This document shows positions 1-3,900 of a DNA stretch of 64,000 nucleotides, one piece after another. A program made the translations under genes and the position numbers. The notes below the pieces were generated by a model. The model did no database searches, was not told the origin of the DNA, and saw only the letters and a program-made list of their open reading frames with translations. The stretch comes from Bacilli bacterium (GTDB taxonomy: Bacteria; Bacillota_I; Bacilli_A; RF39; UBA660), in NCBI GenBank assembly GCA_017434825.1, contig JAFSGC010000009.1, forward strand, positions 1-64,000, in the 5' to 3' direction. Numbering within the stretch: position 1 is the stretch's first letter; each line of letters opens with the position of its first letter.

Positions 1-138
1 AACAAGTTGTTGGATTTTGATAGCGAAGTAAAGAAAGTGCTGCAAGCACAAAGGTTATTAGCATCAACATTTACAAATGCTAAAAATCAAGTAATTAGTG
101 CTCAAGAAACGATTGCAGGACAAGCGTCAGGTTTATAG
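1..138 (+). CDS. WXG100-family protein, C-terminal 45 residues (cut by window edge)
   Basis: Only the 3' end is present, with the reading frame open from base 1 to the TAG at 136-138. Its 45 residues are identical to the C-terminus of the complete WXG100 protein at 2205-2501; the DNA differs only at three third-codon positions. It is therefore the first gene of a duplicated cassette. WXG100 proteins are small helical hairpins exported as dimers by type VII (ESX/Ess) secretion systems, often as partners of larger substrates. The next gene starts 10 bp downstream and belongs to the same operon. Confidence 0.75.
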   Translation, partial: NKLLDFDSEVKKVLQAQRLLASTFTNAKNQVISAQETIAGQASGL

Positions 139-178
139 GAGTTAGAATATGGCAAATGTATATATAGATAGTGAACAG
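1..178 (+). repeat. Direct repeat, copy 1 of WXG100 3' end and next gene start
   Basis: This stretch is nearly identical to about 2364-2544. It covers the last 138 bp of the WXG100 gene, the 10-bp gap with the ribosome binding site, and the first codons of the next gene. All differences inside the WXG100 coding part are synonymous, which suggests a cassette duplication kept alike by selection or gene conversion. Confidence 0.85.
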
Positions 179-1258
179 TTAAGAACAATTGCAAATAGTT
201 TAAAATCTAAGGGAGAAAATATTCTTTCTGCATATCAAACTGATTGTAATAGTGCACTTCAAAAAAGTACTGAATGCATTTCGTTAACTGGTTTAGATAC
301 AACTGAATTTTTAAATCAATTAAATAATGTTTATCAACAATTGAATGAAAGAATCAATAATTTTGCAAACTTCTTAATTAATTCAGTAGCAGATCAATAT
401 GAATTAGTTTCTCAGTCAATAACAACTAACTTTAATTCAAAGGTTGGCTCTCAATTAGCAAGTATACTAGGCATTTCTTTGGTTGCCTCTACAGTAGTAC
501 CATCAGTGGGTGAACCTACTGAAAATGTTGGTGGAACTTCTCCTGGCGGAAACGTTGGCACAACAACTAATAATTCTGGAAATACTACTTCGGAGAGTAC
601 TGTTACTACATGTTCTGGAAATGCTATAACTACGTGTTCAGGAAGTACAATTACTACTTGTTCAGGAAGTGCTATAACCACTTGTTCTGGTAGTGCAATA
701 ACTACCTGCTCCGGAAGTGCTATAACCACTTGTTCTGGTAGTACGATAACTACATGTTCAGGAAGTACTATAACCACTTGTTCAGGTAGCACAATAAATA
801 CAAACGCTACAGAGCAACCAACATCGAATTCTGCAGGAAACGAACAACAAGCGTCTACAACGACTCCAGCTGAGAATACAACACAAGGATCCACTACAAT
901 AACTACCTGTTCAGGAAGTACAATAAATACAAATGCTACAGAGCAATCAACATCGAATTCTGCAGGAAATCAACAACAAGCGTCTACGACGACTCCAGCT
1001 GAGAATACAACACAGGGATCTACTACAATAACTACGTGTTCAGGAAGTTCTATAAACGTTAACACATCGAGTTCTAGTGCAAATTCAAAACCAACTGTCC
1101 CTTTGAATAAAACCGGTAATAGCAGTATTAAGAAAGTGGCTTTTGATGATGGTCAGACCTCAAGTGGAACGAACACATTTGCCGGACGTGCTACTTTAGG
1201 TACACCAAAATTTACTGGCGGTGGAACTAGCGGAGCTACTGTGAGTCAATTTTTATAA
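149..1258 (+). CDS. WXG100-associated secreted-type protein with ten TTCSG repeats
   Basis: 369 aa. Residues 1-110 form a predicted helical domain homologous to the N-terminus of the protein at 2512-3423, with two shared cysteines near residues 33 and 43. Residues about 120-310 are Ser/Thr/Asn-rich and hold ten TTCSG motifs: eight in an uninterrupted run with an eight-residue period (ITTCSGS plus A or T), then two more in a longer repeat of about 40 residues. These ten cysteines are the only ones outside the N-terminal domain. Codons of the repeats vary while the amino acids stay fixed. There is no classical signal peptide, so export through a type VII-like route with the upstream WXG100 protein is the inference. 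AGGAG at 138-142 sets the ATG. A hairpin and then a radical SAM gene follow. The repeat region could be a modified peptide core or a structural cysteine ladder. Confidence 0.75.
   Translation: MANVYIDSEQLRTIANSLKSKGENILSAYQTDCNSALQKSTECISLTGLDTTEFLNQLNNVYQQLNERINNFANFLINSVADQYELVSQSITTNFNSKVGSQLASILGISLVASTVVPSVGEPTENVGGTSPGGNVGTTTNNSGNTTSESTVTTCSGNAITTCSGSTITTCSGSAITTCSGSAITTCSGSAITTCSGSTITTCSGSTITTCSGSTINTNATEQPTSNSAGNEQQASTTTPAENTTQGSTTITTCSGSTINTNATEQSTSNSAGNQQQASTTTPAENTTQGSTTITTCSGSSINVNTSSSSANSKPTVPLNKTGNSSIKKVAFDDGQTSSGTNTFAGRATLGTPKFTGGGTSGATVSQFL
601..795 (+). repeat. Eight 24-bp tandem units encoding (I)TTCSG(S/N)(A/T)
   Basis: Eight consecutive 24-bp units encode the eight-residue TTCSG repeat; two further units lie near 895-925 and 1024-1050. 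Thr, Cys, Ser and Gly codons use different third bases from unit to unit (for example TGT/TGC, ACT/ACC/ACA/ACG, TCT/TCA/TCC). The array is therefore old or under selection at protein level, not a fresh slippage product. Confidence 0.9.
823..1050 (+). repeat. Two longer direct repeats (about 120 bp) each ending in a TTCSG unit
   Basis: Near-identical segments encode INTNATEQ, then TSNSAGN, QQAST, TTPAENTTQGS and TTITTCSGS. They begin near 796 and 919. Higher DNA identity here than in the 24-bp array suggests a more recent duplication inside the gene. Confidence 0.75.
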
Positions 1259-1268
1259 ACAGAATAAT

Positions 1269-1296
1269 AAAAGAAGTATATTTATATCTTCTTTTT
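1269..1296 (+). terminator. Hairpin with T-run between substrate-like gene and radical SAM gene
   Basis: AAAAGAAG (1269-1276) pairs with CTTCTTTT (1288-1295) and runs into T residues, 21 bp before the radical SAM start codon. It looks like a partial intrinsic terminator or attenuator. Inference: it would give more transcript of the repeat protein than of the enzyme. Confidence 0.55.
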
Positions 1297-1316
1297 CATG
1301 AAGAAGGAGGTAATGC

Positions 1317-2147
1317 ATGAAATTTGAAATTAGAGGAAAAACATATGAAATTAAGCCATATGTTTGTTCTCCAAATACAAAATTTCCATTTTATATTAAT
1401 ATTACTAATAGATGTAATGCTAGATGTGAATTTTGTTGTAATGGAACAAATAAGGATTATCGAAAATTAGACTTAGATTATTTAAAAGAAGTTTTAGATA
1501 TAGTAAGTGATAAAGTAAGTAGAATTTCAATCAGTGGCGGCGAGACAATGATTGATTCTGAAGATTTAGAAAATCTTATGAAGTTGGTAAATACTTATGG
1601 CATCCGTACTACTATAAATAGTAATGGTAGTTTTTTAAAGAAAAATGTTCAAATGTTAAATCAATTTGAGAATCTAGAAGCTGTTATATTAAGTCGACAC
1701 CATTATGAGGATATCCAAAATAATGGAATATTTAAAATTGATACCTTAGGTTGGGATGAAATAAACAATTTAGGGTTAAGATCGGATTTAAGAATAAATT
1801 GTCTATTAATAAAAGGTTTTATAGATTCTTTAGATGAAGTAACTAAGTATTTAGACATTATTGGTGAAGAAACAAAAATCTTTCAAGTTGGATTTATATC
1901 AATGATGGGAGTAAATGAATATACCAAGAATAACTTTGTAGATTATCGAGATCTTACTAAAGATTTGGGAGAACAATTTCAACCTGTTGAATTAATGCAA
2001 GATGGATGTAGATGCTCTTGCGCTAATTATTTTTACACATCAAAATGCGGAAGAAGAATATTTGTATATTTTAGGTATACTAAAGAATATGGTTGCAGTG
2101 GTCGTAGCCTATTCTTTGATTGCGCAGGGTTAAAAGAGGGATATTAA
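1317..2147 (+). CDS. Radical SAM enzyme with Cys-rich C-terminus, beside TTCSG protein
   Basis: 276 aa. The radical SAM cluster motif CxxxCxxC is at C33, C37 and C40 (CNARCEFC), followed by an SGGE motif near residue 75 and NSNG further on, so the core barrel is present. The last 46 residues hold six cysteines (231, 233, 235, 244, 260, 269), consistent with an auxiliary iron-sulfur site though not a clear SPASM pattern. Start ATG 1317 has a perfect AAGGAGG at 1304-1310. The gene follows the TTCSG-repeat gene and is missing beside the repeat-free paralogue at 2512. Radical SAM enzymes next to repeated Cys/Thr/Ser peptides commonly install thioether or other carbon-centred crosslinks. The exact reaction here is unknown and substrate assignment is inferred from context. 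Confidence 0.8.
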   Translation: MKFEIRGKTYEIKPYVCSPNTKFPFYINITNRCNARCEFCCNGTNKDYRKLDLDYLKEVLDIVSDKVSRISISGGETMIDSEDLENLMKLVNTYGIRTTINSNGSFLKKNVQMLNQFENLEAVILSRHHYEDIQNNGIFKIDTLGWDEINNLGLRSDLRINCLLIKGFIDSLDEVTKYLDIIGEETKIFQVGFISMMGVNEYTKNNFVDYRDLTKDLGEQFQPVELMQDGCRCSCANYFYTSKCGRRIFVYFRYTKEYGCSGRSLFFDCAGLKEGY

Positions 2148-2204: not shown

Positions 2205-2501
2205 ATGGCGAGAATAGCAATGTCAATCGATGAGATGACCGATATAATAACAAAGCTAACAAATTCGAGTAATGAAATCGAAGAAATATGGAATTCAATA
2301 AAAACAACGGAAGTAGAACAAATTAAAGAATCTTGGGTAGGAAAAGATTGTGATGCATATATAAACAAGTTGTTGGATTTTGATAGTGAAGTAAAGAAAG
2401 TACTGCAAGCACAAAGATTATTAGCATCAACATTTACAAATGCTAAAAATCAAGTAATTAGTGCTCAAGAAACGATTGCAGGACAAGCGTCAGGTTTATA
2501 G
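2205..2501 (+). CDS. WXG100-family secreted protein (ESAT-6-like)
   Basis: 98 aa. Predicted helix, then a turn with the WXG motif (WVG in ESWVGKD, near residue 45), then a second long helix: the standard WXG100 layout and length. Members are exported by type VII secretion systems and often pair with a neighbouring substrate. AAGGGAG at 2190-2196 sits 8 bp before ATG 2205; a GTG at 2196 would overlap the ribosome site and is rejected. The C-terminal 45 residues are identical to those of the gene cut at the left edge. No ATPase (EssC-like) or other channel gene is in the window, so the export machinery must lie elsewhere. Confidence 0.8.
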   Translation: MARIAMSIDEMTDIITKLTNSSNEIEEIWNSIKTTEVEQIKESWVGKDCDAYINKLLDFDSEVKKVLQAQRLLASTFTNAKNQVISAQETIAGQASGL

Positions 2502-2544
2502 GAGTTAAAATATGGCAAATAATGTATATATAGATAGTGAACAA
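2364..2544 (+). repeat. Direct repeat, copy 2 of WXG100 3' end and next gene start
   Basis: Near-identical partner of 1-178. Homology falls away a few codons into the following genes, which then diverge strongly. Confidence 0.85.
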
Positions 2545-3423
2545 ATAAAAAATATTGGTAATAGCCTATTAGAGAAAAGTCTTAAAATATATATGGCATA
2601 TCGTGGAGAGTGTACTCCTGCGATTACTGCTGGTGCAGATTGCATTCAATTAACAGGTGTTGATATTAACGAAATGAACGCTAAACTTGATGAAATTTAT
2701 AAAAATCTACAAAACAACATTCAAGCATTGGCTCGATTTTTAATTAATAATGTTGCTGCAACTTATGATATAGTAATGGATTCCATAAGAAATAATTTTA
2801 ATAATGAACTTGGTCAAGCGTTAGCCAATATTATGGGAATGAATGCGATTCTTCCACCAACCCCAAATACACACCCTGAAAACGATTCGGGTATTATTGA
2901 TGACTCAGCGGGGACTTCTGATAACGAAAACCTTGCATCTACAACGGAACCGGGCAATATCGGTGATACATCATCAGGTTTAGGTGCAGACGAGTCAACA
3001 CAAGTTTCTAACGGTGGAAACGAGAGTTCAGTAGCACCTGATAATGGAACCGGTTCAGCAACACCTTCAACAGAAGCTACTGTGGAACCTACATCAAATG
3101 GAATTGCATCAGAACCACAAAATCAATATCAAACACAAAGTGAAGCAACTTCTAATGTAGTTAATCCAACGAAGGTGATAAAACCTAATTTAACAAATCA
3201 GACGCCAATTAATGATGGTAGATCTCCTATGGTACAATTTGAACCAACGTATGTAGGCGCAGAGACTACTACATTAAATTCTTCGGCTTCTAGTACCATG
3301 GCTTATCCGAGTGCTAGTGCTGTAACTCCTACATCTGGAACAAGCGGATTTACATCTGCTGGAAGCGGAGGCTTTTCTACAGTAGATTATTCGAGTGTAG
3401 GCGGAGGCGTATACATTCGCTGA
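2512..3423 (+). CDS. WXG100-associated secreted-type protein, Ser/Thr/Pro-rich, no TTCSG repeats
   Basis: 303 aa paralogue of the protein at 149-1258. Residues 1-112 match its helical N-terminus, including two cysteines and the (I/L)xLTG(V/L)D motif. The C-terminal 190 residues are low-complexity Ser/Thr/Asn/Glu/Pro and contain no cysteine. The gene starts 10 bp after the WXG100 gene with AGGAG upstream of ATG 2512. It has no radical SAM partner, so it serves as an internal contrast for the first cassette. The role of the disordered tail is unknown; a surface-exposed or spacer function is possible. Confidence 0.7.
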   Translation: MANNVYIDSEQIKNIGNSLLEKSLKIYMAYRGECTPAITAGADCIQLTGVDINEMNAKLDEIYKNLQNNIQALARFLINNVAATYDIVMDSIRNNFNNELGQALANIMGMNAILPPTPNTHPENDSGIIDDSAGTSDNENLASTTEPGNIGDTSSGLGADESTQVSNGGNESSVAPDNGTGSATPSTEATVEPTSNGIASEPQNQYQTQSEATSNVVNPTKVIKPNLTNQTPINDGRSPMVQFEPTYVGAETTTLNSSASSTMAYPSASAVTPTSGTSGFTSAGSGGFSTVDYSSVGGGVYIR

Positions 3424-3585: not shown

Positions 3586-3900
3586 ATGGTAGATACGGAT
3601 ATTATAAAAGATAACTTGCAAAAAATGGATAATAAATTAATGCAACTGAAAACAATATCAGAAGATTTATCTTCAATAAAGGGCTTTTTTGCTAATCTTG
3701 GAGATATGCAAGTACAACTTGAAGAAGAATATATTTCGATGAAGATGCATTTTGACGAAGTTTTAAATGGGTGCATGACGTTAAATTCTTTGATATCTCA
3801 GAAGTTAGCAACGGAATACGATGATGTTTATAGCAATCTTGCTAAAGGTTTTGAAGAGGCAATGAATGTTCTTATGAGCTCAATAGATTCATTGTATTAA
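3586..3900 (+). CDS. Small all-helical protein, possible WXG100/type VII accessory
   Basis: 104 aa, predicted to be almost wholly alpha-helical with heptad-like hydrophobic spacing and no signal peptide or membrane segment. AGGAGG lies 8 bp before ATG 3586. Size and helical pattern resemble WXG100-like secreted partners, but the W-x-G turn is absent. It follows the two WXG100 cassettes and precedes the tRNA cluster. I do not recognise a named family; the link to type VII secretion rests on position and shape only. Confidence 0.5.
   Translation: MVDTDIIKDNLQKMDNKLMQLKTISEDLSSIKGFFANLGDMQVQLEEEYISMKMHFDEVLNGCMTLNSLISQKLATEYDDVYSNLAKGFEEAMNVLMSSIDSLY

What the first reader, a model, noticed from the sequence alone, without database searches (positions are those of the whole stretch)
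149..2147. Candidate peptide-modification system: TTCSG-repeat secreted protein plus radical SAM enzyme
Seen: ten TTCSG motifs, eight in a strict eight-residue period, in a protein whose N-terminus belongs to a WXG100-linked family; next gene is a radical SAM enzyme with CxxxCxxC and six C-terminal cysteines. The paralogous cassette (2205-3423) has no cysteine repeats and no enzyme, a natural contrast. Known: radical SAM enzymes beside Cys-rich repeat peptides often form thioethers or other crosslinks. Inference: the enzyme modifies each TTCSG unit, and the product leaves through a type VII-like route. I cannot place this pairing in a described class.
Basis: partly seen in the sequence, partly recalled or inferred. 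Interest (0 to 1): 0.92.

Follow-up and report, generated by a model that had tools for sequence, protein, structure and literature searches.

The report
Radical-SAM enzyme paired with cysteine-repeat protein
A tiny-genome gut bacterium carries a secretion-type protein with ten identical cysteine units next to an enzyme from an apparently undescribed family that almost always sits beside such cysteine-tailed proteins, even in giant phages, so the enzyme probably chemically alters those cysteines.

Summary
ORF 149-1258 (369 aa) has ten TTCSG units, eight in a strict 8-residue period, behind a helical domain with an LTG turn. A 276-aa radical SAM (rSAM) enzyme follows at 1317-2147. The paralogous cassette has neither Cys units nor enzyme. 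The literal TTCSG array occurs in no other sampled family genome (0 of 385), but the pairing does. All four other sampled family genomes with a close rSAM relative (53-64% identity) have GHP[A/S]CG repeats directly 5' of it, and those repeats occur in no other genome (4 of 367). Distant relatives in Clostridia, Bacteroidota and huge phages mostly sit behind a small protein ending in Cys, usually with an inner Cys-Gly/Ser unit: 26 of 38 family members against 3 of 95 other rSAM genes. In one NAD-gene cluster both genes are missing together. Best reading: a new maturase family, MoaA-like in fold, without an RRE or full SPASM domain, acts on Cys units of its neighbour, here fused to a type-VII-type domain. 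Chemistry (thioether favoured), export and biological role are not shown. Only two of the six C-terminal Cys are conserved, plus Cys17. New variant of a known kind.

The parts
1..138 (+). 3' end of a WXG100 gene (contig begins here); 46 aa
   Evidence: 135/138 identical to 2364-2501, same protein end
149..1258 (+). Putative precursor: LXG/WXG-like N-domain plus Thr/Ser/Gly-rich tail with ten TTCSG units, 369 aa
149..493 (+). N-domain of the precursor: helical hairpin (helices 8-44 and 51-94) with LTG at residues 46-48
   Evidence: low-confidence AF2 model pLDDT 55; Pfam LXG E=0.018, below cut-off; 43% identical to paralogue
605..787 (+). Tandem TTCSG units 1-8, 24-bp period
902..916 (+). TTCSG unit 9
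1031..1045 (+). TTCSG unit 10
1285..1312 (+). Predicted hairpin that covers the AGGAGG ribosome-binding site of the enzyme gene
   Evidence: -9.8 kcal/mol, z -2.3; inference only
1317..2147 (+). Radical SAM enzyme, 276 aa, MoaA-like fold without RRE or complete SPASM domain
   Evidence: Pfam Radical_SAM 3.9e-13; AF2 pLDDT 92; fold matches
1365..1367 (+). Invariant Cys17 codon, candidate auxiliary-cluster ligand
   Evidence: invariant in 36 family members
1413..1436 (+). CNARCEFC, SAM-cluster motif
2013..2021 (+). Invariant C233-x-C235, candidate auxiliary-cluster ligands
2205..2501 (+). WXG100 protein of the paralogous cassette
2512..3423 (+). Paralogue of the precursor without Cys units and without an enzyme

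Best explanation
The rSAM enzyme (1317-2147) is a dedicated maturase of the protein encoded just upstream (149-1258). It acts repeatedly on the TTCSG units in the disordered tail, using a SAM-derived radical and a likely auxiliary Fe-S cluster (Cys17, Cys233, Cys235) that can hold the substrate Cys thiolate. The most likely product is an intra-unit thioether between the Cys and a nearby residue, about -2 Da per unit. The LXG/WXG-like N-domain with a WXG100 partner would then carry the modified protein out through one of the genome's two type VIIb secretion systems. Shown: the repeats, the enzyme family and its conserved residues, the predicted fold, family-wide co-occurrence with Cys-unit proteins, joint absence, and presence of EssC. 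Inferred: that the Cys protein is the substrate (about 0.75), thioether chemistry (about 0.4), export by type VII (about 0.5). The biological role is unknown; a cross-linked surface or secreted stalk is my guess.
For: All five sampled family genomes with this enzyme clade (>=53% identity) have a Cys-repeat protein directly 5'. GHP[A/S]CG occurs in exactly the four other clade genomes of 367 sampled and always beside the enzyme (chance of that overlap about 1e-9, though three of the four share one genus). L069 and L073 repeat the pattern. In the wider family 26 of 38 directly 5' ORFs end in Cys against 3 of 95 beside other rSAM genes (Fisher p 2e-15) and 13 of 550 background ORFs; some Clostridia have six or seven Cys-Gly/Ser units (L077, L078). 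Cys context is shared: +1 is Gly or Ser in 47 of 57 inner Cys and -1 is mostly Ser, Gly, Pro or Ala, as in TTCSG. NadR-[Cys protein-rSAM]-PncC/CinA in L021, with the same pair behind NadR in L018-L020, against NadR-PncC/CinA with both missing in L167; congeners of G121 lack both genes. Selection keeps TTCSG. The fold is closest to GDGT-MAS, MoaA and the peptide cyclase SuiB. Two EssC loci above the curated cut-off.
Against: No product has been seen. The leader of the GHPxCG precursors has no detectable relation to the window's N-domain (hhalign), so recognition here must work through the units or a swapped leader. The window protein lacks the C-terminal Cys that is the commonest feature elsewhere. 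No dedicated peptidase or ABC transporter was seen nearby. Only three family-wide Cys lie outside the SAM motif, so a second cluster is likely but not proven. The WXG100 and LXG hits are below curated cut-offs. N-domain model confidence is low.
Confidence: 0.68

Rival explanations
1. The Cys protein is an obligate partner and not a substrate: its flexible Cys tail is a swinging arm or a sulfur, metal or electron donor for the rSAM enzyme, which acts on a small molecule or nucleotide, as MoaA and viperin do.
For: Best curated scores are MoaA and viperin; MoaA-like fold; several relatives lie among NadR, PncC/CinA, PRPP synthetase and ADP-ribosylglycohydrolase genes; most relatives carry only one to four Cys, one at the very C-terminus.
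Against: The window clade has no NAD-gene neighbours; multiplied identical units (10 TTCSG, 4-5 GHPxCG, 6-7 SSCGSS-like) fit repeated substrates better than a donor arm; core letters differ between clades as substrates do.
Confidence: 0.17
2. The enzyme modifies the repeats but does not make thioethers: it epimerises residues next to Cys, oxidises Cys or Ser (formylglycine-like) or joins carbons. (A rival on chemistry only, so it overlaps the best explanation's substrate claim.)
For: YydG/EpeE is the best PDB hit by single sequence and scores 49.7 bits in NCBIfam; repeated-motif rSAM peptides include cyclopropylglycine formation at TVGG (PMC9062424); the fold is close to SuiB, a C-C bond former.
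Against: EpeE score is far below the cut-off of 300 and its fold match is weaker (Z 13.7). Cys is the one residue kept across all core types, which fits a reaction at sulfur.
Confidence: 0.3
3. The Cys repeats form disulfides or bind metal in a secreted stalk, and the rSAM gene next door is unrelated.
For: The tail is low-complexity (74% T, S, N, G, Q, A), like stalk regions.
Against: Family-wide pairing far above background and joint absence.
Confidence: 0.04

Closest known systems
CXXX-repeat peptide / rSAM maturase (NCBIfam TIGR04115)
   Same: rSAM gene beside a protein with regularly spaced Cys
   Different: That maturase is a SPASM-type protein of about 435 aa in L153; TIGR04115 is not among the listed hits of the window enzyme while the phage copy in L153 scored 429 bits. 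Repeat spacing and letters differ.
TvgB/TvgA (TVGG-repeat, poly-cyclopropylglycine; PMC9062424)
   Same: rSAM acts on many short tandem units of one precursor, -2 Da per event
   Different: Target is Val, no Cys; the cluster has transporter/peptidase and oxidase genes
Ranthipeptides, e.g. PapB/freyrasin and SCIFF
   Same: Several Cys per precursor; thioethers made by an rSAM enzyme
   Different: Those enzymes carry SPASM domains; the PapB and SCIFF models are not among the listed best hits of the window enzyme
His-Xaa-Ser system HxsC (TIGR03977)
   Same: Short rSAM related by sequence (50.8 bits) and repeated core
   Different: Cut-off 267.9 not reached, no His-Xaa-Ser repeat, no HxsB partner beside it
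MoaA (GTP 3',8-cyclase)
   Same: Whole-length fold similarity (Z 19.4) and probably a second cluster
   Different: Score 56.8 against cut-off 284; gene context is a Cys protein, not molybdopterin genes
LXG proteins of type VIIb secretion
   Same: Probable helical hairpin with L-x-G turn, WXG100 partner gene, EssC in genome
   Different: Pfam LXG score below cut-off; no known toxin domain, the tail is Cys-repeat instead

Membership tests
Radical SAM superfamily | CxxxCxxC and partial TIM barrel | tested here: met
   Pfam PF04055 3.9e-13, 50.4 bits over 29.5; AF2 pLDDT 92 with matches across rSAM folds
SPASM-type peptide maturases (sacti/ranthipeptide) | C-terminal SPASM domain with seven to eight Cys | tested here: not met
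   Six Cys in the window, only C233 and C235 conserved in the C-terminal part of the family; no SPASM-type NCBIfam model near its cut-off
SPASM-type peptide maturases (sacti/ranthipeptide) | N-terminal RRE domain for leader binding (usual, not universal) | tested here: not met
   The SAM motif begins at residue 33 and only short strands precede it
CXXX-repeat maturase TIGR04115 | Score above 350 bits | tested here: not met
   Not among the listed hits of the window enzyme nor of 32 relatives at 1e-10; control L153 429 bits
His-Xaa-Ser system HxsC | Score above 267.9 bits | tested here: not met
   50.8 bits
YydG/EpeE epimerase | Score above 300 bits | tested here: not met
   49.7 bits
MoaA | Score above 284 bits | tested here: not met
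   56.8 bits
Prokaryotic viperin | Score above 180 bits | tested here: not met
   48.8 bits; PADLOC pVip matches only the rSAM core
LXG/WXG100 type VII substrate | LXG profile over its cut-off | tested here: not met
   15.3 bits against 26.5
LXG/WXG100 type VII substrate | Long helical hairpin with L-x-G turn | tested here: inconclusive
   Helices 8-44 and 51-94, LTG at 46-48 in both paralogues, but pLDDT 55
LXG/WXG100 type VII substrate | WXG100 partner gene adjacent and EssC in genome | tested here: met
   WXG100-like ORFs at 1-138 and 2205-2501, just under the curated cut-offs; two EssC loci at 947 and 924 bits over 778
RiPP | Precursor modified by the clustered enzyme | not testable with these tools
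   Needs mass spectrometry
RiPP | Precursor-enzyme gene pair conserved across lineages | tested here: met

The most novel reading that the evidence does not exclude
A previously undescribed class of small, MoaA-like rSAM maturases without RRE or complete SPASM domain modifies Cys units in the tails of neighbouring small proteins across gut Bacilli and Clostridia, Bacteroidota and megaphages, where the pair often sits in NAD-metabolism gene groups. In this window the substrate region has been fused to a type VII secretion domain, giving the first rSAM-modified type VII substrate.
Probability: 0.4. Interest if true: 0.87.

Novelty: new variant of a known kind. Interest (0 to 1): 0.7.

Why it matters
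It adds a compact candidate maturase family with a simple, testable two-gene layout and repeat substrates, and it links radical peptide chemistry with type VII secretion, for which the library searched holds no joint paper. The same pair in megaphages beside NAD genes suggests the modified tail has a general use that nobody has named.

Tried and rejected
Chance neighbours: rejected by co-occurrence. Search with the single window enzyme in species genomes and in viral contigs found nothing, because the patterns were too exact; alignments were needed. Literal TTCSG arrays elsewhere: none in 385 other family genomes; two viral hits, one in a CXXX-repeat protein beside a TIGR04115 maturase and one in a long phage ORF with no rSAM gene seen beside it, where the motif looks incidental. 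A phylum-wide sample (391 other genomes) has no further member at 1e-30, so the family is rare. The six C-terminal Cys as a family feature: rejected. Leader homology between window and GHPxCG precursors: none found. Literature searches for rSAM with WXG100, LXG, huge phages or NadR gave no matching system.

Full report
What is in the sequence. The window begins inside a WXG100 gene (1-138), followed by ORF 149-1258, a 58-base gap, and an rSAM gene at 1317-2147; then a second WXG100 gene (2205-2501), a paralogue of the first ORF (2512-3423), a small protein (3586-3900) and a tRNA group. The genome is 1.07 Mb in 20 contigs and the window starts at the first base of contig C6. ORF A has ten TTCSG units, eight at a strict 8-residue step, in a Thr/Ser/Gly-rich tail. 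The core never varies although codons do. The paralogue shares the N-domain (43%) but has no tail Cys.

The enzyme. It is a true rSAM protein that belongs to no curated family: the best NCBIfam scores include MoaA 56.8 (cut-off 284), HxsC 50.8 (267.9), YydG 49.7 (300) and viperin 48.8 (180), and among 32 relatives the same models recur. Across 36 family members the invariant residues are Cys17, the SAM motif, GGE, S126, H128, N200 and C233-x-C235. C162 is kept in the window clade and many others but is replaced in L018 to L021. AF2 gives pLDDT 92; the closest solved folds are GDGT-MAS, MoaA and SuiB, over nearly the whole length. There is no room for an RRE domain and no complete SPASM domain. 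From general knowledge of MoaA and of sactisynthases, a second cluster with an open site would suit binding of a substrate group; that Cys17, 233 and 235 form one is inference.

Relatives of the enzyme. In 386 family genomes four others carry close relatives: G121 at 64% and G172, G275, G351 at 53-54%. Each has, overlapping the enzyme start, a gene for a protein of about 145 aa with GHPACG or GHPSCG repeats. A pattern search for that unit found it in exactly these four of 367 genomes. Two further genomes show the same: L069 with five units, and L073 with two and an enzyme that may be broken. The tree puts the window with L069, L011 and L012-L014 at 100/100 support. The leader of these precursors has no detectable relation to the window's N-domain, so in the window the unit-bearing tail has become attached to a type VII-type domain, or the reverse.

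The wider family. Rows at about 25-38% identity come from Bacilli and Clostridia MAGs, a Paludibacteraceae MAG, a Prevotella plasmid, and phages: LR756501 (735 kb), LR756502 (642 kb), LR745206 (635 kb) and IMG/VR contigs. Most sit directly behind a small protein whose last residue is Cys and which usually carries a Cys-Gly/Ser unit some ten residues earlier, for example SSSCGGGGISSYRSC or VDPCGRGGKTSNFSHC. By script 26 of 38 family members have a 5' ORF ending in Cys, against 3 of 95 other rSAM genes in the same loci and 13 of 550 ORFs overall. The script took the longest 5' ORF and so missed L016 and L074, where the Cys protein lies one gene further up, and L084, where a shorter ORF ends in Cys; L083 ends in CG. 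L039, L048 and L053 had no such gene that I could see. Rows are related, so the p value (2e-15) overstates independence. L077 and L078 have seven and six Cys in the tail. In several genomes the pair lies directly behind NadR, with PncC/CinA after it in L021 and close by in L018 and L020; in L167 NadR and PncC/CinA are adjacent with both pair members missing. The two genes come and go together.

Mechanism. I favour a maturase that acts on each Cys unit. The shared sense of TTCSG, GHPxCG, SSCGSS and DPCGRGG is a Cys between small residues with Gly or Ser after it. A reaction at sulfur, most simply a thioether to a close residue, explains why Cys alone is fixed. Epimerisation or a carbon-centred change remains open; repeated non-Cys units are known to be modified by TvgB (PMC9062424), and thioethers made by rSAM enzymes at several Cys of one precursor are reviewed in PMC8326336. 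A donor-arm role for the Cys tail is the main non-substrate rival and is stronger for the one- or two-Cys phage proteins than for the ten-unit window protein.

Export. Two EssC loci with YukD-like and WXG100-like genes are in the genome. The N-domain has an LTG turn and a WXG100 neighbour, but scores below the LXG cut-off and its model is weak. I put type VII export near 0.5.

Limits. MAG assembly (completeness 93.4, contamination 5.82), genome names hidden for G handles, open-access literature only, no product data.

Noticed in passing
L041, L042, L043-L058 (phage contigs); L018-L021: The enzyme plus Cys-tail protein pair is in huge phages beside NadR-like or RlmN-like genes, and in Bacilli behind NadR with PncC/CinA, PRPP synthetase or ADP-ribosylglycohydrolase close by; the link to NAD metabolism is unexplained.
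   Followed up: partly
L153:5977-8390: A phage contig with tail-like genes carries a TIGR04115 CXXX-repeat maturase (429 bits) next to a 357-aa protein with Cys at about every fourth residue.
   Followed up: partly
1285-1312: Predicted hairpin covers the ribosome-binding site of the enzyme gene, possibly holding enzyme output below precursor output.
   Followed up: no
1-138 and 2364-2501: WXG100 ends 98% identical, a recent duplication or conversion; probably also why the contig breaks here.
   Followed up: partly
L049:4901-5050, L057, L058:4814-5008: A short protein with a conserved AACGQL stretch follows the enzyme in several phage contigs (read on in the enzyme ORF in L057).
   Followed up: no
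L039:5795-7078, L015, L016, L074, L077, L078: A HemN-like second rSAM (about 430 aa, NTSYP motif) is often adjacent to the small rSAM.
   Followed up: no
L073:4986-5477: Enzyme ORF of the window clade is short (163 aa) with GCE in place of GGE, perhaps a decayed copy beside a two-unit precursor.
   Followed up: no
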